NCBI GenBank assembly: GCA_025890175.1
Contig: JANPYM010000012.1
Location: 2,024,677 to 2,088,676 of the forward strand
Direction: 5' to 3'
Source of the DNA: Ciborinia camelliae
Lineage: Eukaryota; Ascomycota; Leotiomycetes; Helotiales; Sclerotiniaceae
Length of the DNA: 64,000 nucleotides
Under the pieces are notes generated by a model, which did not search any database, was not told the DNA's origin, and saw only the letters and a list, made by a program, of their open reading frames with translations. The number at the start of each line of letters is the position of its first letter. Position 1 is the first letter of the stretch. Positions 7,438 to 62,108 of the stretch are shown here, in pieces. The position numbers and the translations under genes are program-made.

Positions 7438-8082
7438 TTACCAACGGTAGTTGTCGCAATTATGATAGCACTCGACACAGTCTTCTGCACCCACATTGCT
7501 ATTGTCATTACCACGATTCTCTCCCTCTCCAGTATTATTCTGGCAACCGGCTTCATGCGCATATCCATCTCCATTATTAATAGGCACACCTCCATGATTT
7601 CCACCCGAACCCCTAACCTCTTCGCCACCCGGAACAATAGTCATTAGTTCATAGGTTTCACGGGCACGAGGATCATGGTCAAGAACAACAAGATCATCCA
7701 GCATACCCGAAAATTCCTCTCCCTCATCCGCATCATTCATAATACCAGAAGATGAGCCAACACTCTCCTCACCATCGTTCTTCTTTCGTCCCGATTCTTC
7801 GCCGCCATCCTGTCCTTGATCTTCTTGTGCCGTCTCCCATCTATCGACGCTTTCCTCGCGGCCAGCTATCTCATCCTCTCTCATCCCATCAATCATCTCC
7901 CAAGCTCGCGTGATTGGCTCATTCTCATATGTGCTCAGTCCCTGCGCCTCCATAAATTCTTTCATGTTTTTGAATCCCGCATTCGTGAGTATTCGAGAGA
8001 TGGATAGCGATTGGTGGATATTGTTCGGGTGGTATGGGGTTGGATTTGATGGTCGGAAAAGACTGCCGATTGGCGATGACAT
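7438..8082 (-). CDS. Small acidic protein with one copy of the FMxxHGL module (cluster member 1)
   Basis: Single-exon ORF of 214 residues, ATG at 8082 in a CAAAATGTC context. Residues 30-70 form the shared module: GFKNMKEFMEAQGL, an acidic turn, then AWEMIDGMRED. The rest is low complexity: an acidic Glu/Gln/Gly-rich middle and a Gly/Asn-rich C terminus ending in a small Cys/Tyr patch (CVECYHNCDNYRW). There is no signal peptide or membrane segment. It is the only member of the cluster on the minus strand, divergent from the gene at 9192. I do not recognise a described family; the module is probably two helices separated by a turn. Confidence 0.7.
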   Translation of the reverse strand: MSSPIGSLFRPSNPTPYHPNNIHQSLSISRILTNAGFKNMKEFMEAQGLSTYENEPITRAWEMIDGMREDEIAGREESVDRWETAQEDQGQDGGEESGRKKNDGEESVGSSSGIMNDADEGEEFSGMLDDLVVLDHDPRARETYELMTIVPGGEEVRGSGGNHGGVPINNGDGYAHEAGCQNNTGEGENRGNDNSNVGAEDCVECYHNCDNYRW

Positions 8083-9191
8083 TTTGAAGTAGAGCGTGGT
8101 GTTTGAGGAGATGTTTGGATTAGTGGTATGATTTGAGTTGGGTATGTATTGTTCAGATTCGGGAATCTGGAGAATAGTATCAGTACGTAGGAGAAACTTG
8201 TAATTATGATTGTGTTATGTGTTATAAAGAGTTGGTGGAGGGTAAAGTGGTTGAGAGGTGGTGGTTGTGTACAATAGATGTTGGTGTGTGGGTATTTGTG
8301 ATCATGCTAGTGCATGTTTGGATAAATTAGACGGGAAAAAAAGAGAACTAGCTAAGAGAGAGAAGCCCTTGTATAAAAGAGTAGGCCAATACGGGAGAGA
8401 TGTATATAGGTATGTATACCACATGACTGAATGCCTTAGAGACATGCCACTATCACTACAGCAACATTAGTGATGAAACAGACAGTTATGGACAGCAGCT
8501 AGGGTGTTGCATGGGTACTGATGCCGTACTATGAGTGAGGGACAGAAACTGTGTTGAAAAAAAACACAAGGCATACTTGAGTAGAAAGTGACTTTGTCGA
8601 ATCTGCGGAGACATATATCAGTATAATAAATAGCTTTCGGACAAAACACGCTCAAAACATAGGTATTAGGTTCTATTGCATCTTTGGAAACGGACCTATA
8701 CTCTCTAGTCTTCTACCAAACGGCTACTTACTACTCGGTAGGTAGCTTTTAAGAGATTCCAGTAGCGAGTAAAGATCAGATAACAATCTGTCAAATTGTT
8801 GCAGATACGCAACAAAAGTTTCTTGACCAATTAGATTAAAAGAAAATGGAAAGTGAATTCAGCCTCTGGTCAAGTTGAATTCAATACTGCAGACTGTCAT
8901 ACGGTCGCAGTAACAAGGGTTGTTTTATCAAGTCACCTAAAGCACTGGTCTGCCGCAGAATTAGCTTAGGATCTTACCTATAAGTAGTCAAAATTTTGAT
9001 CTTCAATCCAAATCCCTCTTTCACGAAACACAAGGATCCATCAACTTTCAACTTCAACGCGACCAAACTTTTACACAGTTCTGAAGGGCCGGTTTAGTCT
9101 TTTTCTCCAAAGCTTTCGTCTCGGCTTCTGTTCTCTTGTCTCTTAAATCCAAACACGATAAAATCTGAGCCGGGGGATCGCAACCATCATC
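8083..9191. promoter_or_regulatory. 1.1-kb divergent intergenic region between cluster members 1 and 2
   Basis: Both flanking genes point away from this segment, so it must contain both promoters. A pyrimidine-rich run at 9098-9150 directly precedes the ATG at 9192, as often seen at fungal transcription starts. No factor site can be assigned with confidence. Confidence 0.4.
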
Positions 9192-9911
9192 ATGCAACAA
9201 ATCGACATGGCATCAACCATGGAGGAACATCCAAGCCAGAGTCTCCCTGTGAGGTTCGCCGATTTAAAAATGAATCACACGGAAACTTTCACGGAATTTC
9301 TTGATAAATTCAAGACCCTCGCCATTCGAGAGAAAATTCCGCAAATCTCTTGGGCTAACCAGCTTAGCCAAAAAGTCATTCCCGATCTATTCGCCGGCGT
9401 ATTGCCTTGGGATCATCTGTATTTCGGCTTTGACCAGTATTGCAATAAATTGCAGATGCGTTATATTGAGATACTCCGTCGCAAGTTGATTGCCAAGAAC
9501 GAAGCTCCTCCCCAAACACCCATAACGAAAGTTGATAAGTCGGACTTGGCTATCATCAGAGACGAAGGTTTCGACAATATGAAACACTTCATGGACTCTT
9601 ATGGTCTCAAACCCGGTAACTACGAAGAATTTGAGGCGGCGAAACAAATCATCAATAACATGCGACATTACAACCAATTTCACCGAAAACAAACCCCCAG
9701 CGTTTCTAGTTCTCTCTCGGATTACAAATCGACTGATCCGAGTGGTATTGTCAATGGGGATGTCGGCTCTGCCCGCGAGATCAAGAGAGATACGAATGAA
9801 GCACCAAGTTCAGACACAAATCAGCCATTCCTGGTCGCAAAGTACGGTCATCCGTTTGGCTATAATCCTTATTACAATAGCTTCATGAGTTCGTTCCAGT
9901 ATAGTAGTTGA
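9192..9911 (+). CDS. Gag-like N-terminal domain fused to one FMxxHGL module (cluster member 2)
   Basis: Single exon, 239 residues, ATG at 9192. Residues 30-100 have the spacing of a retrotransposon Gag capsid-like domain: FTEFLDKFKTLA, a Trp at 54, L/I-rich helices, then a QYCNKL segment. Residues 119-161 are the shared module: GFDNMKHFMDSYGL, then AAKQIINNMRHYN. A Ser/Thr-rich tail and a Tyr/Asn/Pro-rich end follow. The N-terminal domain resembles that of the next gene (11333-12172), which lacks the module. This suggests domain shuffling within the locus. Function is unknown; the Gag resemblance is by pattern only. Confidence 0.7.
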   Translation: MQQIDMASTMEEHPSQSLPVRFADLKMNHTETFTEFLDKFKTLAIREKIPQISWANQLSQKVIPDLFAGVLPWDHLYFGFDQYCNKLQMRYIEILRRKLIAKNEAPPQTPITKVDKSDLAIIRDEGFDNMKHFMDSYGLKPGNYEEFEAAKQIINNMRHYNQFHRKQTPSVSSSLSDYKSTDPSGIVNGDVGSAREIKRDTNEAPSSDTNQPFLVAKYGHPFGYNPYYNSFMSSFQYSS

Positions 9912-11332
9912 ACCGCGTATCAATTGCGGGAACGCTCCACGCAGGCTCCGTCACCGAACTCAGTCTAGGAGATGGCAAATTTGAGGGGCGGTTTTTGGTC
10001 GGATAGATAGTTAAGCAGCTTTGGTGGCACGGTATAAGAATTTGTGAGAATGGAAAGGTACAATGGGAATAGGAATGGTGGATATGATGCAAACTTGATC
10101 GACGATTAACGGATTTCCTAATCTGGCGTTTTGGCCGATGTGTGCTGGTTGTGCCTTGAGGACTTGACAGAGCCTCAAGAGATATTGATCGAGGAAAGGT
10201 GCTGGTATTACTTGAGCTCAGATGTAGATCTAGATCTAGGAGCCAAATATAAATAAACAACTCAATTAATCAAACAAATATCGTTCAGTAATATATTCAT
10301 ACATATTCCATGTGAAAATTCGTACATTGATCTCATCTACAACCAAAATCCATTCCTCAATTAGTCATGATAGCTCGCTAGTCAACTCCAACTCCCAGAT
10401 AGCATTTGCTGTCATTATCCACCGTCTGAAATTGATGAAGGCCTAGAAACGTGTTTCTTGATGCTTCTGCATCATTTGGAATAGGTAATACTTTGCTGGA
10501 AATCAACCGGTAGCTTTCCCCACACTGCAAAAAGTACCTCCTGCTAATTCAGCCAACGACTCGAACGGCTTTGAAATCATCGAGCTATTGAGTTTGTCCA
10601 GATTTCCCTATAGGCATAGACCAAGTTGGAACCCCTATCTGGTAAGCTTTAAACATTGGGTTTAAACTGGTTGAGGGTGTTTTTAATGACTTTGGGGTGT
10701 TTGAACCACGTAATTTGGATTAAAGAGGTGTGTGGGTAGTCAGTGGGTACTAGCCTATTGGTATGAGTCGTAGATCTTTTGATTGTGACAGCAATACGTT
10801 TGGCCTGACTGGGAAGGAATTTGAGAGTAAGAATCATGGCTGAAATGAAACTGCTATATTTTGCCAGATGTTGAAGGCATATAAAACACCATAAGTCATG
10901 AGTAATTGAGGGCAGAAACGACCGAGACCCGAGCAATTGCGCAGTTTGTGTACAAGAACAAATGAGAGGTTAGAACAATGCAGATAAGTCAATCAAGCAT
11001 AAATAGAAACTTAAATTAATTGGGAATTATAAATAAATTAGGGTGCAAAGATTATTTTTCGCAATAGAAGTTGAAGTCAAAGTTCCAACCAAGGTGGTTT
11101 ACAAATGAAGAAGTGACAACCGTATCACATTGCATTTGATGCAAGTGCCATGGCTATTTCGATGAAGATATCTTTGGAAGTCAAATTAAGAGATGTGTAC
11201 CTTCTTTATTCTGTATACTTAACTTGAGCGTCCTAAATCTATGATCCTCATTGAAAAATCTCCTCTGGTTCAAACCCTACCTTCACCTTTACAACATCTT
11301 TACCTCAAACATTACTAGACTTCCAATCCAAT
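9912..11332. other. Intergenic, 1.4 kb
   Basis: AT-rich spacer with several short open frames (for example 10649-10936 on minus) that lack any recognisable motif or start context. It includes the promoter of the gene at 11333; a CT-rich tract lies at 11265-11330. Confidence 0.4.
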
Positions 11333-12172
11333 ATGTCACTACCAACAAACTTCGATACGTACACCCGTCTTCTGATGGAAAACACAAACGTGTGGTCGAT
11401 CTCATTCAACCAATTCCTCAAAACGTTTAATAAAATGACCAAAGATGCGGAGATTTCAGCAAAAGAATGGCGTGAAAATATCTCTGCCCATCTTTCTTCG
11501 CAGACGCTGATTAACCTTGCACCCATCGATCTCCCACCAAAACGGTTGGAGAGATTTGTTACACATTGTCAGAATCTGGTGCACAAGCCAAAGTACGGGG
11601 ATAAAAAGTCGACGATAAAAGTGGTACAGGAGGGATCAATAGAAAGGACCAATATCTCGGAATACCGTGGAGGTCCAATGATCTGGGAAAAGTGTGCTGG
11701 GGGCCCTTTCAAGACTAGTCCTGGTGAAAAACCAAAATTTCATAAGGACAGGCTATTGACGAAGCCACGTGTATTTATGAATTCAAGACCAGGCGTTGCT
11801 GTATCTTCATGGAATAAGAGAGGTATTATACTATTTGGCGGTAGCAAAAGCATGGAGGTTGGCGATGAGGTTATATGTGATGCCGAGGGTAAAACTGTTC
11901 GTGTGTCGGGCTTCGAAGGAGACGGCAGACCATTCTTCGAGATTGATCCGGTGCTCGTGACACATGATCTTAACAAGAAGGAGGTTTGGAAGATGGGATA
12001 TGATGCCAATGGAAAGTGCATCGACGCCCTTTTTGATGAATGTGGGGAGCTTGAAGGCATTTATGAGGGAGGTTATGTTTGGAGCAAATCGACCAAGACC
12101 TACGATGGTTACATTCGAATTGACCAACTTGTGGACAATGATAAGGGTCTACTGGTCGATGATGTCGCGTAG
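11333..12172 (+). CDS. Hypothetical protein with gag-like N-terminal domain
   Basis: Single exon, 279 residues, ATG at 11333. Residues 20-90 resemble residues 30-100 of the gene at 9192: SFNQFLKTFNKM, a Trp at 46, P-I-DLPPK, then FVTHCQNL. The remaining two thirds contain a compact beta-rich-looking region (EVGDEVICDAEGKTVRVSGF) and an acidic end, with no family I recognise. There is no copy of the FMxxHGL module. It sits inside the module cluster and shares its single-exon structure. It may be a relic of, or a host gene derived from, a retroelement Gag, but no protease, RT or integrase follows. Confidence 0.65.
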   Translation: MSLPTNFDTYTRLLMENTNVWSISFNQFLKTFNKMTKDAEISAKEWRENISAHLSSQTLINLAPIDLPPKRLERFVTHCQNLVHKPKYGDKKSTIKVVQEGSIERTNISEYRGGPMIWEKCAGGPFKTSPGEKPKFHKDRLLTKPRVFMNSRPGVAVSSWNKRGIILFGGSKSMEVGDEVICDAEGKTVRVSGFEGDGRPFFEIDPVLVTHDLNKKEVWKMGYDANGKCIDALFDECGELEGIYEGGYVWSKSTKTYDGYIRIDQLVDNDKGLLVDDVA

Positions 12173-13700
12173 TTCATTGACTGTTGGTGCCGCTGAGGAG
12201 GAAAGATCAAAGTGCATAATTCAAGGCAAGGGTCGAGGAAAAGTATAGGATGCGAAGAGAGTTGGTTGCTTTTATGCTATTCTGTTTCATCATTAATCCA
12301 AGATAGACATTCGCTTGAATCAATATTGTACAGAGAGGAAATACATGGCTTATTAACCCGCCAGGCACAAAACCCGCCCCGCGGGTACCCGTTACGCAGC
12401 CTATCGATAGGTATTTGTATATCGACCCAAGAGATCATTTGATTGTTAGATGTAAGTTAAGATGGATTTTCAGAAATTTCATAAGGATATAAGCCTAAGA
12501 GATCCCTTAATTATCGAATCTTGCTTGGAACATTGAAGAGTTTCACAAGACATCTAAGCCTAAGAGACCATCTCCGTACAACTTCGTGATATCGACTTCT
12601 GTGATTGGTCAATAAAGCGAAAGTGGGGTGACCTCCTTTCTGTTCTTTTGCCTCCTGTTGTTATCCCTACACTTAAATTTCGTCTAATTTACACCCATCC
12701 CTCAGAAAACGAAAAATATAAAACGATGAATCAACACTACTTTCTTGCGCATGAATGGGGGTGTGACCATATTCTGTTTTATGACTTTCAGGTACCTGCG
12801 CGGGATGAACCAGAGCCATCGCATTAATCCCGGTGCCATCATCGAGTTATCCTAATCATCCAGGCTCAAATAGAAGATGGAAATGTCCAAGTGAAAACTG
12901 CTGCGGCCAAAGTTGAAGCCTCTATGGTTATTCTATCTGGCGACTGCGGAGATTTTCATCAGGATGGAGAAAGGTGAGAAGAAGGGATTCAAGGTTGCTT
13001 CGGATATGCTTGGGAGAGAATACAAGTGAGCTAATATTGATGCATTCTGGGTTAGGGAAACCGATTTTTCTCGAGATGAGAACCTGGAATTTGCAGGATT
13101 GTCGATGGAGATGATTCGGGAGTTTTTGCGCGCTTTTCTCGTGAGCATTGGGATTAGCAAGAGATGACAGGATGGATGTGAGCGCATGGATAGGAACAAT
13201 CGACTATTAACACCTATAATATTTATTTGAGCCATGATACTGGTGAAACTTCAAGTTGATAAGAAATTGTTATGAATTGGCCAGAGGAAAATTGTCGATC
13301 GAGAAAGGCAGGTGAATGGATTGAATTGGCACCATGAATATAGGGGAGAATCCAGATATTGAATAAAACGAAATCAAATAACAGCCCGATTCAAATTGAA
13401 TGGTGAGAGTGATTTGACTTGGAAGATGATTGAAGTTAGATTATGTTTCATTACACAGGTAACCTGCGAGTGTACAAGAAACCTCTCTCGTAGGAGAAGA
13501 GACCAGACACTTTGAGATGAGACGATTCTTTATGCGAGAAAAATACATATACACAATTCATCTTCCGTTTGTCGCCCAAATGCAACCAATATCTCAAATC
13601 TGAAACCCCCTTTTCACACTTTTTTTCCCGCCAAACCTGAGAATATTCGACTCTACTTATCGCACAAAACTGGTACGCAATTAATCCCAAAATACACCTC
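12173..13700. other. Intergenic, 1.5 kb, with a possible gene remnant at 12868-13170
   Basis: A GC-rich patch with CCGCCCCGCGGGTACCCG lies near 12370. At 12868-13170 (+) coding-like sequence appears in two frames. The second runs from GEKKGF to GISKR and is interrupted once by TGA, just beside a GTGAGC...TTAG pair only about 36 nt apart. I cannot tell a very short intron from decay. Nothing else is supported. Confidence 0.35.
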
Positions 13701-13734
13701 AACCATCGAAATTTCGGAATGGCTTTCGAAATAG

Positions 13735-13962
13735 GAACAAACCCGGCATTTAGTGGGAGATGCAACTTCATCAGCGCCCACCACCCAAACCGAGAAGTTT
13801 GACTATGCAAGCGTTCGCAAGGGCATGGAAGATCTCATAAAATCTTGTGGGTTAAAACTCCAAGATGAAGAGGATTATCAGCTAGTCAAGAAAATTATCA
13901 ACGATATGCGAAAACATGACAAGAAGGATCTTAACTACTGCCAAGAATACCGACGTAGTTGA
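13735..13962 (+). CDS. Short FMxxHGL-module protein lacking an in-frame ATG (cluster member 3)
   Basis: The reading frame is open from 13735 to the TAG-free stop TGA at 13960-13962 and encodes about 69 residues from the GTG at 13753. The module is clear (MEDLIKSCGLKLQDEEDY, then VKKIINDMRKHD), but the segment before MED is about three residues shorter than in other copies. No ATG lies upstream in this frame after the TAG at 13732. An ATG at 13719 in a good context (GGAATGG) is in another frame and would need a frame change of one base to join. Either a 5' exon or frameshift is missing from view, or the gene is a truncated relic. Confidence 0.5.
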   Translation, partial: EQTRHLVGDATSSAPTTQTEKFDYASVRKGMEDLIKSCGLKLQDEEDYQLVKKIINDMRKHDKKDLNYCQEYRRS

Positions 13963-14485
13963 CAGTTTAGCTCCGAGCGATGAAAAAAACCAACCATAGA
14001 GGCCATTAAATTGTCGACCCAAGCCAAATTTCCCTAATCGCACCACCTTCAAGCCATTCCATCTTATTGAGGACGCAAGAAGAATATTTCCGCTAGTTCT
14101 TGAAATCTTGGGATTGATTTTCGAATCACCATCCCGTCAATATAAAAAGAGTGACAACTTAAGAGTGACCATCACGATTGAATTATGGAAATTGCCTACG
14201 GGAAATTAATTTGCCGGCGAACAAACAAGAAGAGAATTTATCAATTTGCTTGTAGCAGATACTCATGATGGTTTCAGCGAATAAGATAAAAAGACGATCC
14301 AAAAAATATGCATGTGGGTATCCGCAGACTGCAGTAACCGCAGTAGCTTAGAGAAATGAGAACAAAAGGCGTTCTCAAACAAAACAAACGAAAATACCAA
14401 CGAACGCACCTTCCATTTTCACATAATAGATACACAACTCGACACTTCCTACTTAAGTGGGTAATCACTCGCAAGAAATTTCAAA
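13963..14485. other. Intergenic, 0.5 kb
   Basis: Spacer between cluster members 3 and 4, holding the promoter of the latter. No motif stands out. Confidence 0.4.
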
Positions 14486-15259
14486 ATGGCCCCTAAAGAT
14501 TTGCACTCCACAGGTTTGCCGCAGACAGAGCAGACCAACAACTCGGGCTATACTCTTATCCATAAGCGTGGCTTTCGCATTATGGAAAAATTCATGGAGA
14601 CTCATGGACTTAGGCCTTGGAACAACGAGAATATCGAAAAAGCCCACCAAATTATCGATAATATACGATCACGCGATACTCAAACATCTGCCGGAGGCTT
14701 TTCTCTAAACCATGACGAGATCTCAGACTATGCTATGATGCGCGAACAAGGCTTCAGTGGAATGAAGGAATTTATGGAGTCTCATGGCCTTAAGCTTGGA
14801 AATGATGAGGATGTCCAAACAGCACACCAGATTATCGACAAGATGCGAGAGTTCGACGAGGAACATAGCAATCTTCCATCCTTCGCTGAACAATCTGACA
14901 ACGCACACGGACAAATTATCGAGTACGAGACGATGCGCGTGTCTGAAAAGCATCGACAGACAATCACTTATGAAGATTTTGATGGCGATAACGAGAGAAC
15001 TGTTATGGGTGGTACAAGTCTGGCTGCGCGACAGGAGGAGGTTTCGCTTGATGTTGGAGACCACATCCCAGATGGATTGGAAGGAGACGGTATCGGCGGT
15101 AGTGATTGGTATCCCCAGGATATCGAAGAAGGTCTCAATGTCCCAGATCTCCAGGATGAAAGTGGTTACAATGGTGAAGACTTTTATGATGAATACGAAG
15201 GATATGATGAAGTTGAGGATGATGGGTATGATTATGATGATGATTATTACTACGACTGA
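14486..15259 (+). CDS. Protein with two tandem FMxxHGL modules and an acidic Tyr/Asp tail (cluster member 4)
   Basis: Single exon, 257 residues, ATG at 14486 (TCAAAATGGCC context). Module copies lie at residues 22-64 (GFRIMEKFMETHGL, AHQIIDNIRSRD) and 82-124 (GFSGMKEFMESHGL, AHQIIDKMREFD). These two copies are the closest pair in the cluster, suggesting a recent internal duplication, and they give the best consensus. The C-terminal third is strongly acidic, ending in a run of Asp and Tyr (YDYDDDYYYD). There is no signal peptide, membrane segment or known domain. Repeated helices plus acid tails suggest a binding or scaffold role, which is inference only. Confidence 0.75.
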   Translation: MAPKDLHSTGLPQTEQTNNSGYTLIHKRGFRIMEKFMETHGLRPWNNENIEKAHQIIDNIRSRDTQTSAGGFSLNHDEISDYAMMREQGFSGMKEFMESHGLKLGNDEDVQTAHQIIDKMREFDEEHSNLPSFAEQSDNAHGQIIEYETMRVSEKHRQTITYEDFDGDNERTVMGGTSLAARQEEVSLDVGDHIPDGLEGDGIGGSDWYPQDIEEGLNVPDLQDESGYNGEDFYDEYEGYDEVEDDGYDYDDDYYYD

Positions 15260-15645
15260 GGGACGTGAAAGCTCGGATGTATTTACCTGTGGTGTTGGGC
15301 TATGAAGGCTCAACAATAGGCATGGGAAACATGGGTACTTAATTAATCCTCAGCATAACATCATTTAGTGAATTAAACTTGTCTGTTGGCCATCTCAACA
15401 CACTCATCATTATTTAATGATACAAGTAGGGATATTGAATTCTTCAAATGAATGATTAATACCGTACATGCGGGGAGTGGCTACCCAGCTTGCACCTTCC
15501 CATCTACGTTTACCGACCTACTTTCTTAAAACGTTTTCCCTTCCCAACCTTTTATTCATCTCCAAACCAAGAACTCGATCCGAATCTGTCTTGATTCTTT
15601 GCAGTATTTACCTTACATACCCCGAATACAACCAATTTCGTAAAG
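15260..15645. other. Intergenic, 0.39 kb
   Basis: Spacer between members 4 and 5. A pyrimidine-rich tract (about 15525-15560) precedes the next ATG. Confidence 0.4.
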
Positions 15646-16140
15646 ATGAGCTCTTCAAACAGTACACCTACGGGTAGACTTTCCGATTCCGCTTGGCTCA
15701 AGAATGGTGGTTGGAAGTCGATGGATCACTTTATGCTTAGCTATAACCTGAGAATCTACGACGAGAAAGACTACGAAGAAGGCAAGAGAATCATCGCGGC
15801 ATTTAGAGCACACGAAGATGAGGAAAAAGAAGCCAATACAAACCAATCCACCGGTATTCAAAACACCTCCCAAAAGACGCAAACAAGCGGGGCGACCGGT
15901 CGTGATGGCGGAGATCATACGGGAAGTGGTTCTGCTAAAGGTGGAAATAATACTTCGGTGGGTAGCAGTGATACTCAGAATAAGACAAACTACAATAATG
16001 GAGGTGTTGAGTTCATGGGCACTTTGCAGGTATTGTGCCTTACACTAAAGAGGCGGTTATTATTATCTGACTCTTGGAACAGGCATACCAATCTTATGGC
16101 AATGGTGGATCGGCGAAAGAATGAAGATGGAATTACATGA
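15646..16140 (+). CDS. Small Ser/Thr/Gly-rich protein with one FMxxHGL-type module (cluster member 5)
   Basis: ATG at 15646 (AAGATGAG context). Read without splicing it gives 164 residues. A plausible 53-nt intron (16030-16082, GTATTG...ACAG, phase 0) would replace the basic tail with a short Gly/Ser-rich end and stop at 16122-16124, giving 141 residues. I favour the spliced form because its tail matches the composition before it. Residues 15-57 are the module in its GW form: GGWKSMDHFMLSYNL, then GKRIIAAFRAHE. The rest is Asn/Gly/Thr/Ser-rich and looks disordered. No known family. Confidence 0.65.
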   Translation: MSSSNSTPTGRLSDSAWLKNGGWKSMDHFMLSYNLRIYDEKDYEEGKRIIAAFRAHEDEEKEANTNQSTGIQNTSQKTQTSGATGRDGGDHTGSGSAKGGNNTSVGSSDTQNKTNYNNGGVEFMGTLQVLCLTLKRRLLLSDSWNRHTNLMAMVDRRKNEDGIT

Positions 16141-16489
16141 TCGTGGTATGGATATGATAGTCTAAAGCGGGATTAGGCAGCGGGCCAAAATTTTCAGAGT
16201 GTGATGTGAGCTAAGAGCTTGGTGCTGACACCAACAGGGTCACGAGTGGTAGATTTTTGATGGTACAAATAATGAAGGAATTATAAAAGTTAATATGAAT
16301 ACTGTATTCTTTCCTCTTTTGGCAGAACTGATCGTGACTACCCAACCCACCCGAAATCCTTACAATAGATCCGCCTCCTAGATCTCTTTCATTTTTCTTC
16401 ACAACAGTTCATTCTTTTACCAATATTTTCATTACAATTTTAACCTGTCATTTTATCATATCCTTAAACATCAAAAACACTCGTTCAAC
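16141..16489. other. Intergenic, 0.35 kb
   Basis: Spacer between members 5 and 6; T-rich stretch at 16385-16450 before the next start. Confidence 0.4.
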
Positions 16490-18043
16490 ATGTCGCTCAC
16501 CGATGCTGTACAGGAAGCTCTCTCGCACGCTCAAAACATGGTTGTCGGGCCCAGCATATACCTAATAGACCGGGATTTTATCTGGCTGGTAACTAATGGC
16601 TGGCCGAATTTACAAACCTTTGTAGCAGAGAACGGCTTTGACATCTACGATTCTGAGCAGATTGACGAAGCGGTCAAAATAATCCAACGCCTTCGATGGT
16701 CCGGTACGAGGCTGGCACGAGTAGGAAGTGTTCTACACGATCCGCTGACAAATTCGCATGTTCCTGTGCAGCTGCTGCCTGAAAGTCAAACTATCGGGCC
16801 TTCGCTTGATATCACTGGTTTTGCGTCGGGCGAAAGTCTATTTATAAAGCCTTTGTCCCATGCTCCTGCTGGCCCATCGATTATCACTCACTATAACGAG
16901 ACCTTGCTCAATGGCCCTATGGAGCCGTCGATTGGAAGTCGATATTTCGAGCCTTTGCTCAGTAATCAAGATAGGAAGGGAAAATCGATCCTAAAAGCAC
17001 CTGGAAACCCTTCACCTGTTCGAGATAGGAAGGGAAAACCGATCCTAAAAGCACCTGGAAACCCTTCAACTGTTCGAGATAGGAAGGGAAAACCGATCCT
17101 AAAAGCACCTGGAAACCCTTCAACTGTTCGAGATATGAAGGGAAAGCCGATCCTAAGAGCACCTGAAAGCCAGTTGCTGTCTTCCAGCCCTTCAATTGTT
17201 CAAGATTGGAAGGGAAAGCCGATCCTAAGAGCACCTGGAAGCCAGTTGCTGTCTTCCAGCCCTTCAATTGTCCAAGATTGGAAGGGAAAGCCGATCCTAA
17301 GAGCACCTGGAAGCCAGTTGCTATCTTCCAGCCCTTCAATTGTTCAAGATTGGAAGGGAAAGCCGATCCTAAGAGCACCTGGAAGCCAGTTGCTATCTTC
17401 CAGCCCTTCAATTGTTCAAGATTGGAAGGGAAAGCCGATCCTAAGAGCACCTGGAAGCCAGTTGCTGTCTTCCAGCCCTTCAATTGTCCAAGATTGGAAG
17501 GGAAAGCCGATCCTAAGAGCACCTGGAAACCCTTCAACTGTCCGAGATATGAAGGAAAAATCAGTACGATTCGACCTTGATGATGGGAATGAACAACCAC
17601 ATGTTGTACAAGAATCAGAAGGTGAAGAACCTGAAAGCGAAGACGGAGGTGTCTCGACTATTCCACTTCCCGATTTTGAAAGCTTCAAATTGAAAACTGA
17701 GAAAATCGAGGAGGGTAAATTTTATACATTAATTCCATCCGGAACATCCGAAACATCAAATCTACTACAAAGTTCTCCGTATTCTCCAACCACCGAACTT
17801 CAACGATCATCCCAGAGTTGTCCAAATGGAAAAGATGCACAAATGAGTCGCAGTCGAGCATCAGAACAGCAGGAACCATTCCAAGACGATTCATTGCAAC
17901 AAAAGCCTGAGAAATCTCAAAGAATTGCTTTGAAGAATTATATAGAATCAAGGAGTTCGAGTCGTAAAAGAGAATTGGATGGTGGAAAATCTGCGAATTC
18001 TTCTGTGGAAAATGCTCCCGAGATTTGTTCCGAGAGTATGTAG
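16490..18043 (+). CDS. Repeat-containing protein with one diverged FMxxHGL module (cluster member 6)
   Basis: Single exon, 517 residues, ATG at 16490. The module lies at residues 30-71 in a diverged GW form (NGWPNLQTFVAENGF, AVKIIQRLR). Residues 161-352 consist of nine tandem units built on D(R/M/W)KGKPIL(K/R)AP. Three units have 18 residues, five have 24 residues (with SQLLSSSPSIVQ), and one final unit again has 18. The units are basic and Pro/Ser-rich. The C-terminal third is acidic, then Ser/Gln-rich and disordered-looking. No signal peptide or membrane segment. The role is unknown; the KGKPIL(K/R)AP units could be short linear binding motifs. Confidence 0.7.
   Translation: MSLTDAVQEALSHAQNMVVGPSIYLIDRDFIWLVTNGWPNLQTFVAENGFDIYDSEQIDEAVKIIQRLRWSGTRLARVGSVLHDPLTNSHVPVQLLPESQTIGPSLDITGFASGESLFIKPLSHAPAGPSIITHYNETLLNGPMEPSIGSRYFEPLLSNQDRKGKSILKAPGNPSPVRDRKGKPILKAPGNPSTVRDRKGKPILKAPGNPSTVRDMKGKPILRAPESQLLSSSPSIVQDWKGKPILRAPGSQLLSSSPSIVQDWKGKPILRAPGSQLLSSSPSIVQDWKGKPILRAPGSQLLSSSPSIVQDWKGKPILRAPGSQLLSSSPSIVQDWKGKPILRAPGNPSTVRDMKEKSVRFDLDDGNEQPHVVQESEGEEPESEDGGVSTIPLPDFESFKLKTEKIEEGKFYTLIPSGTSETSNLLQSSPYSPTTELQRSSQSCPNGKDAQMSRSRASEQQEPFQDDSLQQKPEKSQRIALKNYIESRSSSRKRELDGGKSANSSVENAPEICSESM
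16970..17545 (+). repeat. In-frame coding minisatellite, nine units of 54 or 72 bp
   Basis: Units start at 16970, 17024, 17078, 17132, 17204, 17276, 17348, 17420 and 17492. The first three and the last are 54 bp, and the five in between are 72 bp. Neighbouring 72-bp units differ by only one or two bases (for example ctgtc/ctatc), showing recent unequal exchange or slippage. All unit lengths are multiples of three, so the frame is kept; for the same reason other frames also stay open across the array. Confidence 0.9.
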
Positions 18044-19452
18044 ATTGAGACATTCTTTGAAGGGATGAAAGAAAGAGCTTAGTCTTTTTATCATTGATAT
18101 CAAGGATGAGATTTCAAGTTGAAGTATATTTTGACTGAGTTGACAATAAGCGCTATGGATATAGCAGTGGGAAGTTGGAAAGGTCTTTCGTGCATAAGTT
18201 ACACTGGTGCACCGCAGCGAAAGCGAATACTTGTTAATAAGCAGAGGAAAATTAGAAAAATGAATCCCAGCGCATAAATGCGAGTATTATTACGAAAAGA
18301 GAAATAATTGAGTTTTTCAAAATCGTGAAATTTTCCGTGTATTGAATACGTTTCGAGAAATCCGAAAAACTGGTCTTCATAGTGGTATATAATTCCATCC
18401 GGTCGAGTAAGGATGCATGATTTCAAGGAAGATGAAAGTGTGCACGATCTATCTGCCCTACGCCCCAATGTGCGTGAACATTCCTTCATGCACAAGGCTA
18501 AATTGAAAAGACATTTACGCTCCCCATACTCTTTCCATTGCGAGTGTTCCATTTCAGAGGATTACCCAATTTCACTACATCCTCAAAATTTATCTACCGC
18601 ATACCACTACCGGACTTAATGTCATGATTTTTGAATCCGGGCTTCTGTGAGTAGTTGAAACGAAGATATTGTCAAAATTCAAAGGCTTCTGGCGAAGTAA
18701 CCAGCCCCTTCTGTATTCTTCTTAATAAAGGGAGTGATCTCAAACCCCACTAACTTTCGCCTGAATAAGCTTCTTTCCTTTCCATTTGTCATACATTCAG
18801 ACCCATCTACCTTCTATCGAAGACTTCCAATGTGGATAATGGTGAAATACCGGATGGTAAATTAGCCATCAGTCTATTCCTTGAAGGTTATCTGAAAACA
18901 AAATCAGGTCACACAAAATGAAGTCACGCAACAGTCTCCTACCCACAACTTTCAACTAATACGCCACAGCATATTCCATGTGTAAGATTCGCATATTCTT
19001 ATTTGTCTGGAATGGTACATCTAGCAGTAGATACCATATGTTGCCACATCGTCTGTCTATATTGTTAACAAAAATCCCGAAATTCTTGAGAAACTGCGTA
19101 CAGAAGATGACTTAGTTTTAGGAAACGATCTTGGGAATCAGAATCAATACTACATAAACTATTTCTGGTCTAGAACTATACCGTGGCAATTCTGGCATTC
19201 AACTTCTACTATTTCCATAATATCAAGATTCAAGGAACACAGATTTTATAGGATAACTAATTGGGTAGATGGTTGACTCTACGGCGATATATTACCATCT
19301 AGCATTTTTTTCTTTTTCCGAAATGCCTTCGTCTGTAAAGACCACGACCAGTATCCCCTTTGACTTCCCGCGAGAACCATTCTCATGGAACCCCTCTCGC
19401 TTAGAATTTTATCTCCCACACTGTACCAATAAGCGCATCGTTAACCGACCAC
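18044..19452. other. Intergenic, 1.4 kb
   Basis: Contains a 117-codon minus-strand open frame (18199-18552) with a hydrophobic C terminus but no recognisable motif and no splice or context support. I do not call it a gene. Confidence 0.4.
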
Positions 19453-20010
19453 TTAAACCATCGGAACCCCCTCGGAGTTCGCACACCACCACATCCACAG
19501 CCCGAACAACATGACATAACCCGTCATTCTCAACCTATACCTCAAATCTCCTAATCGCATACACCACATAGTCATCAAATCAAACACCAGTAGTAGGAAG
19601 CACCTCCCCAACACAAGAATTTCCGCTGCAATGAATCTTTTTTTGGAGCCCAACAAATAGCCGCCAATGGCACGAATGAGTTCACGTAACGCCCATCCAA
19701 AAGTGGCAACAACTATAATGGTAATCACTTCCTGGAGATCGTCTCTGGTGAAAGTCAAAATTATAGATCGGGGGGTCAGAAAGAAGTTCAACCGCGGTTT
19801 ACTGTGATTCCTGTCGGGCGGTTGACGGTTTCTGATCGCGCGTGCGTCCTGAGCTCGTTCTATGGCGAGTTCGTGAGCATATTGTGATATGGCTAGACCC
19901 AGATATCCTTGCCGGATCATACGGAGTCTATTCTCCCTGTCTTGTAGATATCCTTGCTGAGCTCTACGGATTATATTCAATCTGTGTTGCAGTTGGTGCA
20001 AGCTAGGCAT
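19453..20010 (-). CDS. Small hypothetical membrane protein
   Basis: Single-exon ORF of 185 residues with ATG at 20010. The N-terminal 65 residues are Arg/Gln-rich and probably helical, with a near-repeat of IIRRAQQGYL and MIRQGYLGLA. Hydrophobic segments at about residues 94-120, 127-150 and 162-176 predict two or three membrane spans. No family recognised and no FMxxHGL module. It lies within the module cluster but on the opposite strand. The composition argues for a real protein, but it could also be a chance ORF. Confidence 0.45.
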   Translation of the reverse strand: MPSLHQLQHRLNIIRRAQQGYLQDRENRLRMIRQGYLGLAISQYAHELAIERAQDARAIRNRQPPDRNHSKPRLNFFLTPRSIILTFTRDDLQEVITIIVVATFGWALRELIRAIGGYLLGSKKRFIAAEILVLGRCFLLLVFDLMTMWCMRLGDLRYRLRMTGYVMLFGLWMWWCANSEGVPMV

Positions 20011-21269
20011 TTTGATGAATCCTTTTTGTTTTTCGAGAGTATGTATGTTGTTTCTTCAGAAGACGTGTCTTTGGAAGGAATCTTTGTTCAATAAAACCTT
20101 AAATGCCTGTATTGACTATGTACGGCAGGAACGATCTTAGAGGTTCTTATCGAGAGCATGTCAACCGGAGTTGGTATGGTTTCCGAGAGAACGTGATAGA
20201 AGTACCACTTGGAGATGAATAATGGTATGGTCTACGGGTACAATTTACCGTAGTATCAATGTTGAAAAACAGACCACTTCGTTGTTTCAATCGCCGCTTC
20301 GTGTGCCGAAATTTCTCCACAATGCTAAGTCATTCCGATATCAAAACATAGAGTTTTATCCCCCCAAAGAACTCGGTGATTGACGCGAATATAATGAAAT
20401 GGAAGGGAGGGAGCTTCTTTAAAATAGATAAGTTGATATTGTGGCTGGTGGGCGGTTCATGAAAGTAAGGAAAGAGACTGAATCACTGAAATGAGATATA
20501 AGTATGGGAAGTAGACAAACAAATGACCAGAGCATCTATTTCATAGTACCTAAGCCCCCTCTACAATTATCATCCCTCTCACGCTATAAATCTCATCAAA
20601 CCTTTCATAATCATCCTTCACATCAAATTCCCTAATCATCAACCCTCAAATAACTGCCAATTCATTCATCACCATCTCAATGACATCATGATCTCACCAA
20701 AATAACTTCCCCCTTTGCCTACATCAGACAAATTATTACCTAAAATGATTTTGAATGCCGAATCCAAGTACTTATGAAAAAAGAAATTCTTTGCATCCTA
20801 GATCCTTAATCAGCAACCTTGAATATTCTAACAGAAAAATTGCAAAGTAAAGTGAATAATGATAATAGAAAGGAATTATAAGGGCCTCAAAATGAAATAG
20901 GGTTTTTTACTTCACTATTATAATCTACATCAATTAACACCACACTGTTTCTAATATTGTTACTTGACCATTTGTGGCCTATCATAATGCCATGAATAAT
21001 GGCAGTTGATAGCATTAAGTGAATCCAACTTCTCACTTGCTCAAACAGTCCTTCTTAATATAGAAGCGCTTCTCCATGTCGGATAACTAGGCTTCTTCCA
21101 CATCAACCTCAGATATTCACAAGATCACCAGCAATCATCTCACAATCTACTTACGATCCATGAAAGTCCTCACAGCCTTTATTATTCCCCGACAAACTTT
21201 CCAATAACAAATGAAGAAATTCAGACACCCAGAGACACCACAACAACATAGACGAAATTTTCTGCGACA
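20011..21269. promoter_or_regulatory. 1.26-kb divergent intergenic region before cluster member 7
   Basis: AT-rich spacer holding the promoters of the minus-strand membrane protein and of the gene at 21270. No specific element is recognised. Confidence 0.35.
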
Positions 21270-22430
21270 ATGAATTATACTCCCATTTACCAACTTCCAA
21301 GACTCGAATGGCTTAACAAGAGAGGCTGGGAAACGTTTCAAGACTTCATGGTGACTTATGGTTATAATCCTCTGAGCGTAGAGGACTATATGAAAGCACA
21401 TGAATTATTGTGCGATTACAGAGCCAGCGACCCGTTCGCAAATAAAGAAGAAGGAGACGAGGCAGATGAGGAAGAGCTAGAGGAGCTTGAGGAGGGTAAT
21501 GATGAATTGTACGAGGAAGAGGAAGAAGAAGAAGATGAGGAAGGGGACAAGGAAAGTGGAATGGCGGAGAGTGAGGAAAAGGAACTAAGCGAGTTTGGAG
21601 AGGTTGGCGATGGTATGAATGATGACGATAATGAGCAAGATGAAATGATGGATGTCAATGAAGAGCAATACAAGGCTTTCGATGGAATGGACGAGGACGA
21701 CGAAAGTTTTGAGGATGAAGAAGCTCGTGAGAACGAAAGACTCGAGACAATCTACAGAGTTCGCTGCGAGGATGAAGGAATCCACCAGTGGCTCACTAGA
21801 CATGGATGGCAGTGCATTGAGGAGTATATGGAATACCATGGAATGAGTATCGCGGAAGATAGCGAAGTTGAGGTGATCGGTGCATTTATTAAGGCGGACA
21901 TGAGACATGAGAAGGGCGATATTCGAACCGGACTTGAAGAGGCTGCTAATGAAATGAGCTTGGTCGACAATTTGGGTTGCGATAATGAGCAGATAGGGAG
22001 AAGCGAAGCACTGATCGAGAAAACGGAAGTTGCACGACAAGCCAATATTGTCGACATTGACGAAGGAGAAACGCTAGCAGTCCGATTTTCTATAGCGGAA
22101 ATTGCAGCGAAAATCAGGAACAGTGTTCAAGTCAAAGACTGGCTTTGCGAGAGAGGATGGTCCAACTTGGAACAGCTCATGGGTGATCATGGTTTGGATT
22201 TCTATGATGACGAATTAATTTTTGTCATGGGGCATCATATCAAAGCGGCAATTGAGGACAACAATCCACACGCACTAGAAGAGCTCGAGAAGCTATTGGT
22301 AATCGGCCACAATCAAGACCGAAACACGAATCAAAACTCACCGAATCAGACGCAAAGGTGCCAGGTAGCAGAAAGCGAAGGAATGAACCAAATGATACAA
22401 AATGGACAGGATGCAGAGATGTCGGGATAA
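21270..22430 (+). CDS. Acidic protein with three FMxxHGL-type modules (cluster member 7)
   Basis: Single exon, 386 residues, ATG at 21270. Modules in the GW form lie at residues 11-53 (RGWETFQDFMVTYGY), 171-213 (HGWQCIEEYMEYHGM) and 288-329 (RGWSNLEQLMGDHGL). The first two are separated by a very acidic linker (about 55-165) with Glu/Asp runs. The three copies are more different from one another than the two in the gene at 14486, so this looks like an older expansion. The C-terminal tail is Asn/Gln-rich. No enzyme domain, signal peptide or membrane segment is visible. It ends the cluster. Confidence 0.75.
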   Translation: MNYTPIYQLPRLEWLNKRGWETFQDFMVTYGYNPLSVEDYMKAHELLCDYRASDPFANKEEGDEADEEELEELEEGNDELYEEEEEEEDEEGDKESGMAESEEKELSEFGEVGDGMNDDDNEQDEMMDVNEEQYKAFDGMDEDDESFEDEEARENERLETIYRVRCEDEGIHQWLTRHGWQCIEEYMEYHGMSIAEDSEVEVIGAFIKADMRHEKGDIRTGLEEAANEMSLVDNLGCDNEQIGRSEALIEKTEVARQANIVDIDEGETLAVRFSIAEIAAKIRNSVQVKDWLCERGWSNLEQLMGDHGLDFYDDELIFVMGHHIKAAIEDNNPHALEELEKLLVIGHNQDRNTNQNSPNQTQRCQVAESEGMNQMIQNGQDAEMSG

Positions 22431-27571: not shown

Positions 27572-28837
27572 TTTTCCAAATTTTATTATGATGCCAAGAT
27601 ATTAGATGGTTATTAAAGAATATAGAAAGTATGGCATTCTCTAGTTCTTGGAATTGATAGATAGAATTAAATGAGAAAAATTTACAACATTTGGGTTCCG
27701 CCAATCTTGGATGGTGCTCAGAATTCTTCTGACGATAATGAGGAGATCCATCACCTGGATAAAACCTCTGCATTCAGCTTGTGAGGTTACTCCCCTCACA
27801 AGATCTGATGACTTGAGATATTGGTCTGGCAGTATGGCAAAACAGCAAACTCAAACAAACTGCTTTTGGACACTGCCAGTCAAGCCCATGGTATCTGTAT
27901 CAGGAATAACGGCCAGTCATAGGACATCAAATGCACCACAAAAAAACTTATTGACTTTCACCCAACATCCTGGAGATATATAGCTCAACAGCCCCATGCC
28001 TACGATTATTTATTTTTCATGATTTAGAGTTGTCCTAAGCGGGTATAAAAGCATTGCTGGGACTCTTCACTTTGGCTTTGGAGGGAAGTCATCACCATTA
28101 TAGAGATGGATTCTACTCAACATGGGGAAGGTACTGGAAGAAAGACTCCCAAAGGGACGATTCTCGAACTTCCTAGTGAAAGTGTGGATCCCGCCTGATA
28201 TTGAGAATCGCCTATTTCGCGGTTATTTCTGCCCGAATATCGGATTCCGTGGCTTTGTCGAAAGATAAAAAACACGGAAATCAATTCGAAAGTTGTGGAT
28301 ATTCCGCAGTCATTGAAACTTTGGCCAAAAGCACAGAAGTTTTTGTTTTGAAAGTCATTGTTTTCAGACATGCTACAAAACCTTTTGGGGGGGGGGGGGT
28401 TGATGTTCACTGTAAACAAAATGCACTTTGGTTTCCGAGNNNNNNNNNNGTTCACTGTAAACAAAATGCACTTTGGTTTCCGAGTCACTTTTCAAGCGGA
28501 TGGGTTTCGTGTGGTATTATGGTTGGACCGGAAGAGAACATACATCTGTTCTGCATACATTTTGAGACGCCAAAGGCTGTATCCGTGGCCTGATTACCAA
28601 ATCATATGTAGCTGTTCCAATCATCATACGTATTTTCATTCAGTATGGCTGGGATTGTGAATTGGGGCATTATGAACAGCTTCTTGACTACGGCTGGTAC
28701 GGTCAAACATGACACAATGCAGAGATAGCGGTTGCTATATCTTTCAATATCCATGCTACTTGGAACTGGGTTTTCCAAGTCCTCATCAACATCAAACCCA
28801 TCAATTTTCGAGAATCCATCCAGAAACTCGTAGCACA
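27572..28837. other. Intergenic, 1.27 kb, containing an assembly gap
   Basis: No gene is supported. It includes a 13-base G run near 28387-28399 and the N gap described separately. The upstream frame of the SprT gene reaches back to 28709, but the better start is at 28838. Confidence 0.5.
28405..28484. other. Assembly gap (10 N) with a 35-nt direct duplication on both sides
   Basis: Bases 28440-28449 are N. The 35 nt before the gap (28405-28439) and the 35 nt after it (28450-28484) are identical, beginning GTTCACTGTAAACAAA. This looks like two contig ends covering the same place that were not merged; the nearby G run may have caused the break. Confidence 0.9.
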
Positions 28838-29881
28838 ATGGGTCAAGCACCTTCAAACCCATCATCTCAAGTCGAGAGAGAGTCGAGAGGATCAGTAACT
28901 GTCGATGAAAGCCTTCGTCAAGGACGACCAGATCAACACTCTTTGGAAGAAGGAGAGTTGAGGGAAGAAGAAGAGCCTGTGTATTATCCTCACGCTTCGA
29001 ACTTTCAGCAAAGCGACCCCAAGTCAAGACAAGTCCCCACTGAACCCCGTTCTTGTCGACGTTTGACCTTGGGTCGCCTCAAATATTTCGGGCACCGACC
29101 TGCAAGACTCGTTTTGGCCGTCAGGAGGTATATACAGCCTCGAAAATCCAAGTTAACCAATGTCCAAGAAGAGGCGATTAGGAAGTGGGGCGAGATAGAT
29201 ATTCTCAATTACAGAGATCAATTTCAGCACGTACCAATTCAACAGCTCCTGGAGAAATACTTTCACATATTTGATGATTTGTTCTTCCAAGGTACGCTAG
29301 AAAACCATGTCAGGATTTTCGCTTCCGAAACACCTGTCAGTATAGCTGGTTGTCAGGGTCACACGTCTCACGACTCCGATACGCACACACAAGTTAAAAG
29401 AGGCGCGACAGTAAATTGCATTTTCCCGAAGAGCACAATTACTCTCTACGCACGCGAGGAGCCGAACTTTGGAGAAATGATGGAACATTCTTTTGGTACT
29501 TTGGTCCACGAGATGTGCCATGCATTTTTCTACATTTATGGATGTATCGGAAAATGCTGTGATAACGGATCTTTGGAGCTGGGAAAAGGCGGCCACGGAC
29601 TTATGTTTCAGGAAATGGCATATGATATTGAGACGATGGCGGCAAGCAAAAGTGTGCTGGGCTTCGACTTGGACCTGGGTAGATACTATAGTCTGCTACA
29701 TGAGATACATCATGTACCCAATTGGAAGGACCAGATGGATGTGAGCAGATGGGGGTTTGATGAGGAGAAATTGACTAATGATTTAATCATATTCAACACC
29801 CGGGGACTTGATTATGTACCGTATGAGAAGCAGAAACCGACGAGGGACGGTGGTCATCGTGGTGTCATTGCACAGATTTAA
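28838..29881 (+). CDS. SprT-like zinc metalloprotease with N-myristoylation-type N terminus
   Basis: Single exon; I choose the ATG at 28838 (347 residues) over the upstream ATG at 28709 because it begins MGQAPSN, matching the MGxxxS myristoylation pattern. The first 90 residues are Ser/Glu-rich and disordered. The catalytic zinc motif HEMCH is at residues 224-228, and a probable third ligand His253 sits in KGGHGLMF, the HExxH...H arrangement of SprT-like domains. A basic patch (RPARLVLAVRRYIQPRK) precedes it. SprT-like proteins such as Spartan/Wss1 digest DNA-protein crosslinks, but fungal genomes carry many uncharacterised members. There is no SHP/VIM/UBZ motif that I can see, so the role is open. 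Confidence 0.8.
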   Translation: MGQAPSNPSSQVERESRGSVTVDESLRQGRPDQHSLEEGELREEEEPVYYPHASNFQQSDPKSRQVPTEPRSCRRLTLGRLKYFGHRPARLVLAVRRYIQPRKSKLTNVQEEAIRKWGEIDILNYRDQFQHVPIQQLLEKYFHIFDDLFFQGTLENHVRIFASETPVSIAGCQGHTSHDSDTHTQVKRGATVNCIFPKSTITLYAREEPNFGEMMEHSFGTLVHEMCHAFFYIYGCIGKCCDNGSLELGKGGHGLMFQEMAYDIETMAASKSVLGFDLDLGRYYSLLHEIHHVPNWKDQMDVSRWGFDEEKLTNDLIIFNTRGLDYVPYEKQKPTRDGGHRGVIAQI

Positions 29882-57503: not shown

Positions 57504-58984
57504 TACTGAGCGTGAAAGTGGATGGGGATGGGGGTGGATTTTATGCTTCGGTTCGGTTCGTTTGTTTAAGGGGGGGGGGGGTTGGAGTTAATTAGCGATG
57601 ACTTTTTTACCAATGGACTTTTTTTCCTACCTCATACTTTTTTGAACCTTCTATTGCTTACATGTGAATAATTCTACTTTTCATACGTACAATATGCCGT
57701 ACTAGATCCTCAATACGCGTCACTGTTGTAAGGTAGTATACTAAGTAGAACACTGGCGAATCTTTCTTGATATTCATCGCAATTATCGAACCCTCCTATG
57801 TATTCATATCTAGCATTTAGGCTTTAGGTTGCGGGGACCGAGGTATTACATGTCAGTCAAAATTCTCTCTATGGAATATATAGGGACGCATCCCCCGAAC
57901 GCTTTCCACTAGTGATACACAGCCTGGCAGGAGATTGAAATCAAGTCACGCAAATCGATACCTTTCAACAAAGAAACCAGTATTGTCCATGGTGAGATCC
58001 ATGGTGTAATCGCATTCCTAACTATCCGCATTGAGGACCTCTATCTACAGTTCTCAAATTCCCATCTTTGGTGGCTCTTAATCCTTCGGATGATTCATAT
58101 ATTTGCCCATTGGTTTGTCTCGATACAATGGATCCCACTACAATAGACGGATCGGCTAGCAATTTGCTTCTGTACTTCGTGACAAGAAATTATCTTAACA
58201 ACCTCTTTTGGCCGTGCAATGTAGATATCTTGTCTCCGGTAAGAAGTTGATAGTAGCTTGTCATCTTTATCGGCATACTACCACTTTCCCGAACCGTTCT
58301 AGAGGAATACTACCCGAAGCTGATACAACCCTCCCGGACAGTTTAATTCTGCATATTGTTAAAGAAACGGTTGCTTTGTAGGTTCGGTTCAGCCCAACCT
58401 AGCCAGTGTAGCGTAGCGCACGCCCGTGCGGGGCAGCGAAGCTGTATTCTACCTTAATCCAATCCTTTGCTTCCATGTCATATATCTGATCGGAGTCATA
58501 CTCTTGACACATATGCATGTATTTTACAATCAACATTCCATCAGATATACCTTCTTTTGACACATTTTCTCCACTAATTCAGGCAATGTTTCTGTATCAG
58601 AAATTCTGCATGTGCACACAGAAATCGCAAAGAAGCCTCCTCTATCAGCAAATCCACCGGATACCACCATTGAATCCTTGTAGTTATCGGTCATGTTCAT
58701 ATAGCGAACTGTCTTCTCCAGGGATTATGTCTCACATTGCATTCTCATTATCACTAGAGTCGGAATTTGGACTTGTGGACTTGAAGAACTGTGGACCTGA
58801 GGTTCGTGGAATTGAGAATTATGGACTTGAGGAATCGTGGATTTTGCAAACATTCTGTATACGGGCCCATAGTGGTAAGTTTGCTTATATTGGAAATACT
58901 AACGCAAACACTAATGCGGAATCATTTGCCAATTAGAAGCTACAGTGGGGTTTACTTAGGGTTGGGGTTAGGGTTTATAATTTA
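57504..58984. other. Intergenic up to the A/T-isochore, 1.5 kb
   Basis: A G run at about 57570-57581 and a small GC hairpin (CGCACGCCCGTGCG) near 58421 are the only structures seen. A 139-codon open frame at 58517-58936 has a short internal repeat (GGACTTGTGGACTTGAAG and variants) but no motif; not called as a gene. Confidence 0.45.
58955..58977 (+). repeat. Telomere-like tract at the left edge of the A/T-isochore
   Basis: Reads CTTAGGGTTGGGGTTAGGG then TTTATAA, with two TTAGGG units around a GTTGGG variant. A/T-only sequence begins directly after it. Confidence 0.65.
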
Positions 58985-59360
58985 GTATTAAAATAAAATT
59001 TGGAGTATGTATAATTCTATTATAATTAAATTATATTTTAATTTTTATAATTTTGATTATATATAATATAAATTTCTTTTTTTTGATTATAATTAATTTT
59101 ATAAAAAACTTAATTTATTTTATATATAATAATATTAAAAATATTATTTTATATAATTTATATATTTTGTTTTTTATATAATTTAAATATTTTCTTTTTA
59201 TAATTTAAATATTTTGTTTTATTTTTAATTAAAATATTTTATTTTTTTTCTAATTAAAATAAAATATTTCTTTTATTATTAAAATGATTTAGTTTATTAT
59301 ATATAAAATAATATTCAACTTATTTTATTTATATAATTTAAATATTTTATTTTTTTATAA

Positions 59361-61914: not shown

Positions 61915-61917
61915 CTA

Positions 61918-62034
61918 ACCATTACAAAAAATAGATTTTCAAACTATAAATTCAAAAAACCCTTTATTTTCTTTTTCTATATAATTATAAGATTCTTTGA
62001 ATTAATAATTTAAAAATCTATTTTCTGCGATGGT
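61918..62034. mobile_element. Small TA-flanked palindromic element (MITE-like)
   Basis: The left end ACCATTACAAAAAATAGATT and the right end, reverse-complemented ACCATCGCAGAAAATAGATT, form terminal inverted repeats of about 35 bp that continue through ATAAATTCAAA / TTAATTCAAA. TA flanks both sides (61916-61917, 62035-62036). The interior holds no ORF. It abuts the outer arm of the large inverted repeat. Confidence 0.6.
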
Positions 62035-62040
62035 TAATAA

Positions 62041-62108
62041 TATTATTAGTATTATTAATATTATTAATATTATTATTAGTATTATTAATATTATTAATAT
62101 TATTATTT
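62041..62108. repeat. ATT/ATTATT microsatellite
   Basis: Imperfect repeats of ATTATTAATATT and ATTATTAGTATT. Confidence 0.8.

What the first reader, a model, noticed from the sequence alone, without database searches (positions are those of the whole stretch)
7438..22430. Cluster of seven genes sharing an undescribed module of about 43 residues (ten copies)
Genes at 7438, 9192, 13735, 14486, 15646, 16490 and 21270 share the pattern (Y/W)xxxxxxG(F/W)xxMxxFMxx(H/Y)GL, a variable acidic turn, then AxxIIxxMRxxD. Copy number per gene is 1, 1, 1, 2, 1, 1 and 3. Outside the module the proteins are unrelated low-complexity or acidic sequences. Six of the seven lie on the plus strand and all are single-exon or nearly so. 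Local gene birth around one recombining helical module is the simplest reading. I cannot link it to a known domain; a self/non-self, scaffold or host-interaction role is speculation.
Basis: partly seen in the sequence, partly recalled or inferred. Interest (0 to 1): 0.88.

Follow-up and report, generated by a model that had tools for sequence, protein, structure and literature searches.

The report
Shared helical module in mould genes
A stretch of a plant-infecting mould's genome carries several otherwise unrelated genes that share one small protein building block not matched to any known domain; the block is real, old and kept by selection, but what it does is still a guess.

Summary
All ten module copies are there. 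Each, left out of the profile in turn, still scores 16.3-56.4 bits; no ORF outside the family exceeds 4.4 bits and no shuffled ORF exceeds 10.1. The window is from Ciborinia camelliae (Sclerotiniaceae). No module-bearing protein scanned reached a Pfam cut-off, and PDB profile searches gave nothing credible.

Two genes on other contigs carry the module. Probable orthologues of two cluster genes and of the C25 gene occur in other Sclerotiniaceae. Synonymous sites between window copies are near saturation while the protein is kept. The copies are old and constrained. One of the seven "genes" (13735) has no in-frame ATG before its module and is probably a remnant.

Best guess: a small helical docking or self-association module of intracellular proteins, carried by acidic cluster members and by a basic C25 protein. 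The fold rests on low-confidence models; the function is inference.

The parts
7438..8082 (-). ORF, 214 aa, acidic, one module
7870..7995 (-). module core (42 aa)
9192..9911 (+). ORF, 239 aa, one module after an N-terminal region of about 115 residues
9549..9674 (+). module core
13735..13962 (+). open frame with one module but no in-frame ATG before it; probable remnant
13798..13920 (+). module core without the G(F/W) turn
14486..15259 (+). ORF, 257 aa, two modules and an Asp/Tyr-rich tail; probable orthologues in Stromatinia, Sclerotinia, Monilinia
14552..14677 (+). module a core (missing or cut short in several relatives)
14732..14857 (+). module b core (mean pairwise identity 0.78 against 0.36 outside the modules)
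15646..16140 (+). ORF, 164 aa, one module
15691..15816 (+). module core
16490..18043 (+). ORF, 517 aa, one module, then an in-frame tandem repeat
16580..16705 (+). module core
16969..17528 (+). tandem repeats of 54 and 72 nt (18 and 24 residues) inside the 16490 ORF
21270..22430 (+). ORF, 386 aa, three modules with acidic linkers; probable orthologues in Stromatinia and Sclerotinia
21306..21431 (+). module a core (mean pairwise identity 0.82 across 5 proteins)
21786..21914 (+). module b core (43 aa, one extra residue)
   Evidence: ends reckoned by hand
22137..22262 (+). module c core

Best explanation
A module of about 45 residues, roughly (Y)xWLxxxG(W/F)xxMxxFMxxHGL...(E/D)DxxxAxxIIxxMR, is shared by a small gene family of Sclerotiniaceae fungi; I found no description of it. 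In this genome the searches found six intact cluster genes and one probable remnant in the window, and two further genes elsewhere. Shown: the window copies are homologous, old and constrained as protein; at least two cluster genes (14486, 21270) and the C25 gene have close relatives in other genera. Inferred: each copy folds as a few short helices and serves as a docking or self-association domain of intracellular proteins. The basic protein on contig C25 (Lys/Arg-rich helix, module(s), conserved C-terminal domain) may be the ancestral carrier; the cluster genes would then be duplicated carriers that put the module on often acidic, flexible chains, able to join or compete in the complexes of the C25 protein.
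For: Reality. Constraint: identity between window copies 44/59/33% at codon positions 1/2/3, 20 of 74 fourfold sites alike (28 pairs of 8 copies; 21270b and 13735 not in it). In each of three genes one module is a conserved island: 14486b 0.78 against 0.36 outside modules (8 sequences), 21270a 0.82 against 0.40 (5; P0013 dropped), C25b 0.69 against 0.48 (5; C-terminal domain not counted as outside). Spread: relatives in Stromatinia, Sclerotinia, Monilinia and Botrytis (all Sclerotiniaceae). 14486- and 21270-type genes appear to share a contig in Stromatinia (EAF04_001116/001112), S. nivalis (OCU04_003413/003420) and S. trifoliorum, judged by equal contig lengths, and by near tags in the first two. 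C25 as old carrier: it is the only type returned from Botrytis, and its two modules fall in different parts of the tree. Intracellular: no signal-peptide-like stretch in 12 of 12 proteins examined, highest 12-residue mean hydropathy 1.20. Helices: models put three helices on 3 of 4 module copies and two on the fourth.
Against: Both models are of low confidence (mean pLDDT 39.1, 43.5); Foldseek on one found nothing (best E 3.3). No interaction, localisation or expression data. The tree has 47 columns and 7 of 28 inner branches well supported; the forks that part the two C25 modules are not among them, and 21270b/c lie outside both groups, so C25 ancestry is weak. Some modules are poorly kept: 14486a 0.25, 21270b 0.50, C25a 0.13 (gaps counted as differences), and are lost in part of the relatives. 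For C25 the module and C-terminal columns did not stand out from circular shifts (702 of 2000; for 14486 49 and for 21270 34 of 2000). Weak Pfam matches under the cut-off touch the modules: E1_4HB on 14486a (17.8 bits, cut-off 25), Nup98_GLEBS on 2 of 30 copies.
Confidence: 0.35

Rival explanations
1. The module is a diverged member of a known small three-helix fold, for instance a UBA-like ubiquitin-binding domain (G(F/W) at the end of helix 1, then two more helices).
For: Similar length and helix order by eye; hhalign against 12 UBA stretches from this genome (of 13 found; one with an internal stop dropped) pairs this turn, and 1 of 100 column shuffles scored as high.
Against: hhalign probability 1.66% over 7 columns; 0.12% when forced global, with 7 of 100 shuffles as high. 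UBA is not among the 8 Pfam families listed for 30 module copies at E<=10 (HMMER's filters drop most matches above about 0.1).
Confidence: 0.12
2. The modules derive from the conserved C-terminal domain (LxxWQRLCxDVG...) with which they share the C25 protein.
For: Similar look by eye only.
Against: Profile comparison gives probability 1.15% over 11 columns in another register; at least 10 of 200 column shuffles score higher. The domain profile had only 5 sequences, so the test is weak.
Confidence: 0.05
3. Recent local gene birth by recombination of one module.
For: Seven of the nine module-bearing places found in the genome lie within 15 kb.
Against: Near-saturated synonymous sites, no long DNA repeats between the genes, relatives of two cluster genes in other genera, four module positions grouping across species.
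Confidence: 0.07
4. The proteins are secreted host-interaction effectors.
For: The species causes camellia flower blight (abstract start seen in the listing), and lineage-restricted genes are often effectors (general knowledge).
Against: No signal-peptide-like stretch in 12 of 12 proteins (simple hydropathy, no dedicated predictor); one module in each of three genes is strongly conserved.
Confidence: 0.06

Closest known systems
C25-type proteins NHQ30_006205, Monilinia fructigena DID88_005932, Botrytis fragariae Bfra_004541, B. aclada EAE96_003979: public proteins without a function name
   Same: carry one or two copies of the module
   Different: Lys/Arg-rich helix and a conserved C-terminal domain; pI 9.1-9.2 in the two computed
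UBA domain (PF00627)
   Same: about 40 residues, G(F/W) after a first helix, by eye
   Different: no profile support
Lineage-restricted orphan gene families of fungi in general (recalled)
   Same: no Pfam family, narrow spread in the searches made, low-complexity carriers
   Different: one short module is shared by otherwise unlike chains and is constrained

Membership tests
UBA (PF00627) | match to the UBA profile | tested here: not met
   not listed for any of 30 copies at E<=10; hhalign 1.66%
UBA (PF00627) | three-helix UBA topology | tested here: inconclusive
   three helices on 3 of 4 copies in low-confidence models
UBA (PF00627) | ubiquitin binding | not testable with these tools
   needs a binding assay
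C-terminal domain of the C25/C23 proteins | profile similarity | tested here: not met
   (small profile)
Secreted effector | N-terminal signal peptide | tested here: not met
   simple hydropathy, 12 of 12 proteins: 6 window ORFs and 6 of the 21 retrieved proteins
Retrotransposon Gag (considered for the 9192 N-terminal region) | Retrotrans_gag profile match | tested here: inconclusive
   no Pfam match for 9192 at E<=1; genome search with PF03732 found nothing, nor did its controls ring
Module family described here | profile match to the module | tested here: met
   10 of 10 window copies, each held out. 20 of 20 retrieved proteins (P0001 left out as a fusion) have a copy at E<1e-7; they had been fetched by similarity, and P0014, P0019 and P0021 are the window's own

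The most novel reading that the evidence does not exclude
Sclerotiniaceae invented a new intracellular recognition module within a basic protein and then spread it onto acidic carriers in one gene cluster, giving a charge-paired set of proteins that assemble with the basic protein, or hold it in check, through a fold not yet described.
Probability: 0.15. Interest if true: 0.6.

Novelty: new member of a known kind. Interest (0 to 1): 0.4.

Why it matters
It turns scattered unnamed stretches into one defined module family with a profile and a first species range, so that public proteins without a function name from several plant-pathogen genera can be grouped and tested together. If the fold proves new, it would be a case of a lineage-restricted domain spreading between unlike chains while being kept by selection.

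Tried and rejected
UBA relationship: a lead from the G(F/W) turn, not supported (one search read the minus-strand loci in the wrong orientation and was redone). Origin from the C25 C-terminal domain: looked plausible by eye, not supported. Gag origin of the 9192 N-terminus: a resemblance recalled from memory; no Pfam hit, no similarity to the neighbouring 11333 ORF, genome search uninformative. Codon usage as a coding test: not discriminating; one training gene (RRP40) itself scored low. Structure: two AlphaFold jobs of low confidence; one Foldseek search without a match; not pursued. PDB: profile searches best E 0.91 and 0.14; the C23 domain best E 0.043, to a designed protein. Literature: sequence words, locus tags and one set of topic words listed 0 papers; another set listed 3 and one search listed 12 of 19 on the species. 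I saw listings with the starts of abstracts only and opened no paper, so 'undescribed' rests on these searches. Telomere: no telomere-repeat array in the last 9.7 kb of contig C4 (0 TTAGGG, 2 CCCTAA), so I claim nothing about position on the chromosome.

Full report
What was checked. The tenth (13735) lacks the G(F/W) turn and was taken from the sequence. In the alignment of ten, four columns reach 90%: two Gly, one Ile, one Arg. To test against chance, each copy was left out in turn, a profile was built from the other nine, and all 737 stop-to-stop frames of 40 or more residues in the window, plus 20 shuffles of each, were scored. The held-out copy stood tenth, behind nine matches, in 10 of 10 runs, at 16.3 to 56.4 bits. 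The best shuffled frame over the ten runs had 10.1 bits and the best frame outside the family 4.4. The weakest copies are 21270b (16.3), 21270a (18.1) and 16490 (19.4).

Where it is. Protein NHQ30_009441 of Ciborinia camelliae (P0001) contains most of the 14486 and 15646 products without change; the species belongs to the Sclerotiniaceae. Among the flanking ORFs scanned, one on the left has a pro-kumamolisin domain, and on the right lie RRP40 and an Hsp70.

Genes. Six ORFs (7438, 9192, 14486, 15646, 16490, 21270) carry nine modules. The seventh place, 13735, has a module in an open frame with no in-frame ATG before it. P0001 joins 14486 to 15646 through an intron of about 437 nt (15226-15662, ends placed by hand). 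The 7 related proteins all end in a similar tail that such splicing would remove, so I treat them as two genes; those proteins are themselves predictions. The public model of 16490 (P0021, NHQ30_009442) begins inside the module. Acidic composition holds for 3 of 6 ORFs.

Beyond the window. Whole-genome searches found two more carriers: a gene on C12 (NHQ30_001950, two modules) and one on C25 (NHQ30_006205, two modules). Such searches score only their best candidates, so the count is a lower bound. The C25 protein has a Lys/Arg-rich stretch and a conserved C-terminal domain; its intron is visible in the DNA and agrees with the public protein. Every hit with an organism name is from Ciborinia, Stromatinia, Sclerotinia, Monilinia or Botrytis; one species of each was looked up and all five are Sclerotiniaceae. 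The searches need shared five-residue words and similar length, so relatives outside the family are not excluded. 9192, 13735 and 14486a were not in the module query (14486 as a whole was the query).

Age and constraint. Among 28 pairs of eight window copies, mean identity is 44%, 59% and 33% at codon positions 1, 2 and 3; at fourfold sites of shared residues 20 of 74 agree. Third positions are thus close to random while the protein is kept, which points to great age and to selection on the protein, also for 7438, 9192, 15646 and 16490, for which no relative of the whole gene turned up. In alignments with relatives one module per gene is best kept: 14486b 0.78 (outside the modules 0.36), 21270a 0.82 and c 0.66 (outside 0.40), C25b 0.69 (outside 0.48). 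The others are not: 14486a 0.25, 21270b 0.50, C25a 0.13, with gaps counted as differences. Circular shifts reached the observed mean in 49, 34 and 702 of 2000 for 14486, 21270 and C25, so C25 does not stand out. In a tree of 31 copies, 14486a and 21270a, b and c group across species with good support. 14486b and C25b have other copies nested in them, and C25a is weakly held. The two C25 modules fall in different parts, on forks that are not well supported.

What it might be. No Pfam family reached its cut-off for the module-bearing proteins scanned. Weak matches below the cut-off touch modules: E1_4HB on 14486a (E 0.0034, 17.8 bits against 25) and Nup98_GLEBS (E 0.014, 2 of 30 copies). In all, 8 families were listed for 30 single copies, none for more than 2. 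PDB profile searches gave E 0.91 and 0.14 at best. Two AlphaFold runs with 8 and 5 sequences were of low confidence (mean pLDDT 39.1 and 43.5); they put three helices on 3 of 4 module copies and two on the fourth, which is suggestive only. UBA and the C25 C-terminal domain were tested by profile comparison and not supported. No signal-peptide-like stretch was seen in 12 of 12 proteins. My reading is an intracellular docking or self-association module, perhaps first carried by the C25 protein; this function is inference.

Verdict. A real, old module family, found only in Sclerotiniaceae in the searches made and without a described relative in them. It is not a recent local burst of gene birth, though older local duplication is likely. 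Lineage-restricted orphan families are a known kind of thing; one constrained module shared by otherwise unlike chains is what makes this one worth a structure.

Noticed in passing
window 16969-17528: Tandem repeats of 54 and 72 nt (96-97% matches) inside the 16490 ORF, far younger than the module copies; may vary in length between strains.
   Followed up: partly
window 9192-9520 and 11333-12172: The 9192 N-terminal region and the 11333 ORF reminded me of Gag-like helical proteins; no tool supported this.
   Followed up: partly
L038 2007-2911 (G000:C23): A gene with what looks by eye like a CCCH zinc finger shares the C-terminal domain of the C25 protein (33% identity over the second exon); no Pfam family for the domain. 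I recall this domain as common in filamentous fungi; not tested.
   Followed up: partly
window 58000-64000 and the end of contig C4: GC falls to 9-12% from 60 kb on and is mostly very low in the last 9.7 kb of the contig, with no telomere-repeat array.
   Followed up: no
window 28688-29878: ORF with a match to SprT-like just under the Pfam cut-off (23.3 against 25.6 bits).
   Followed up: no
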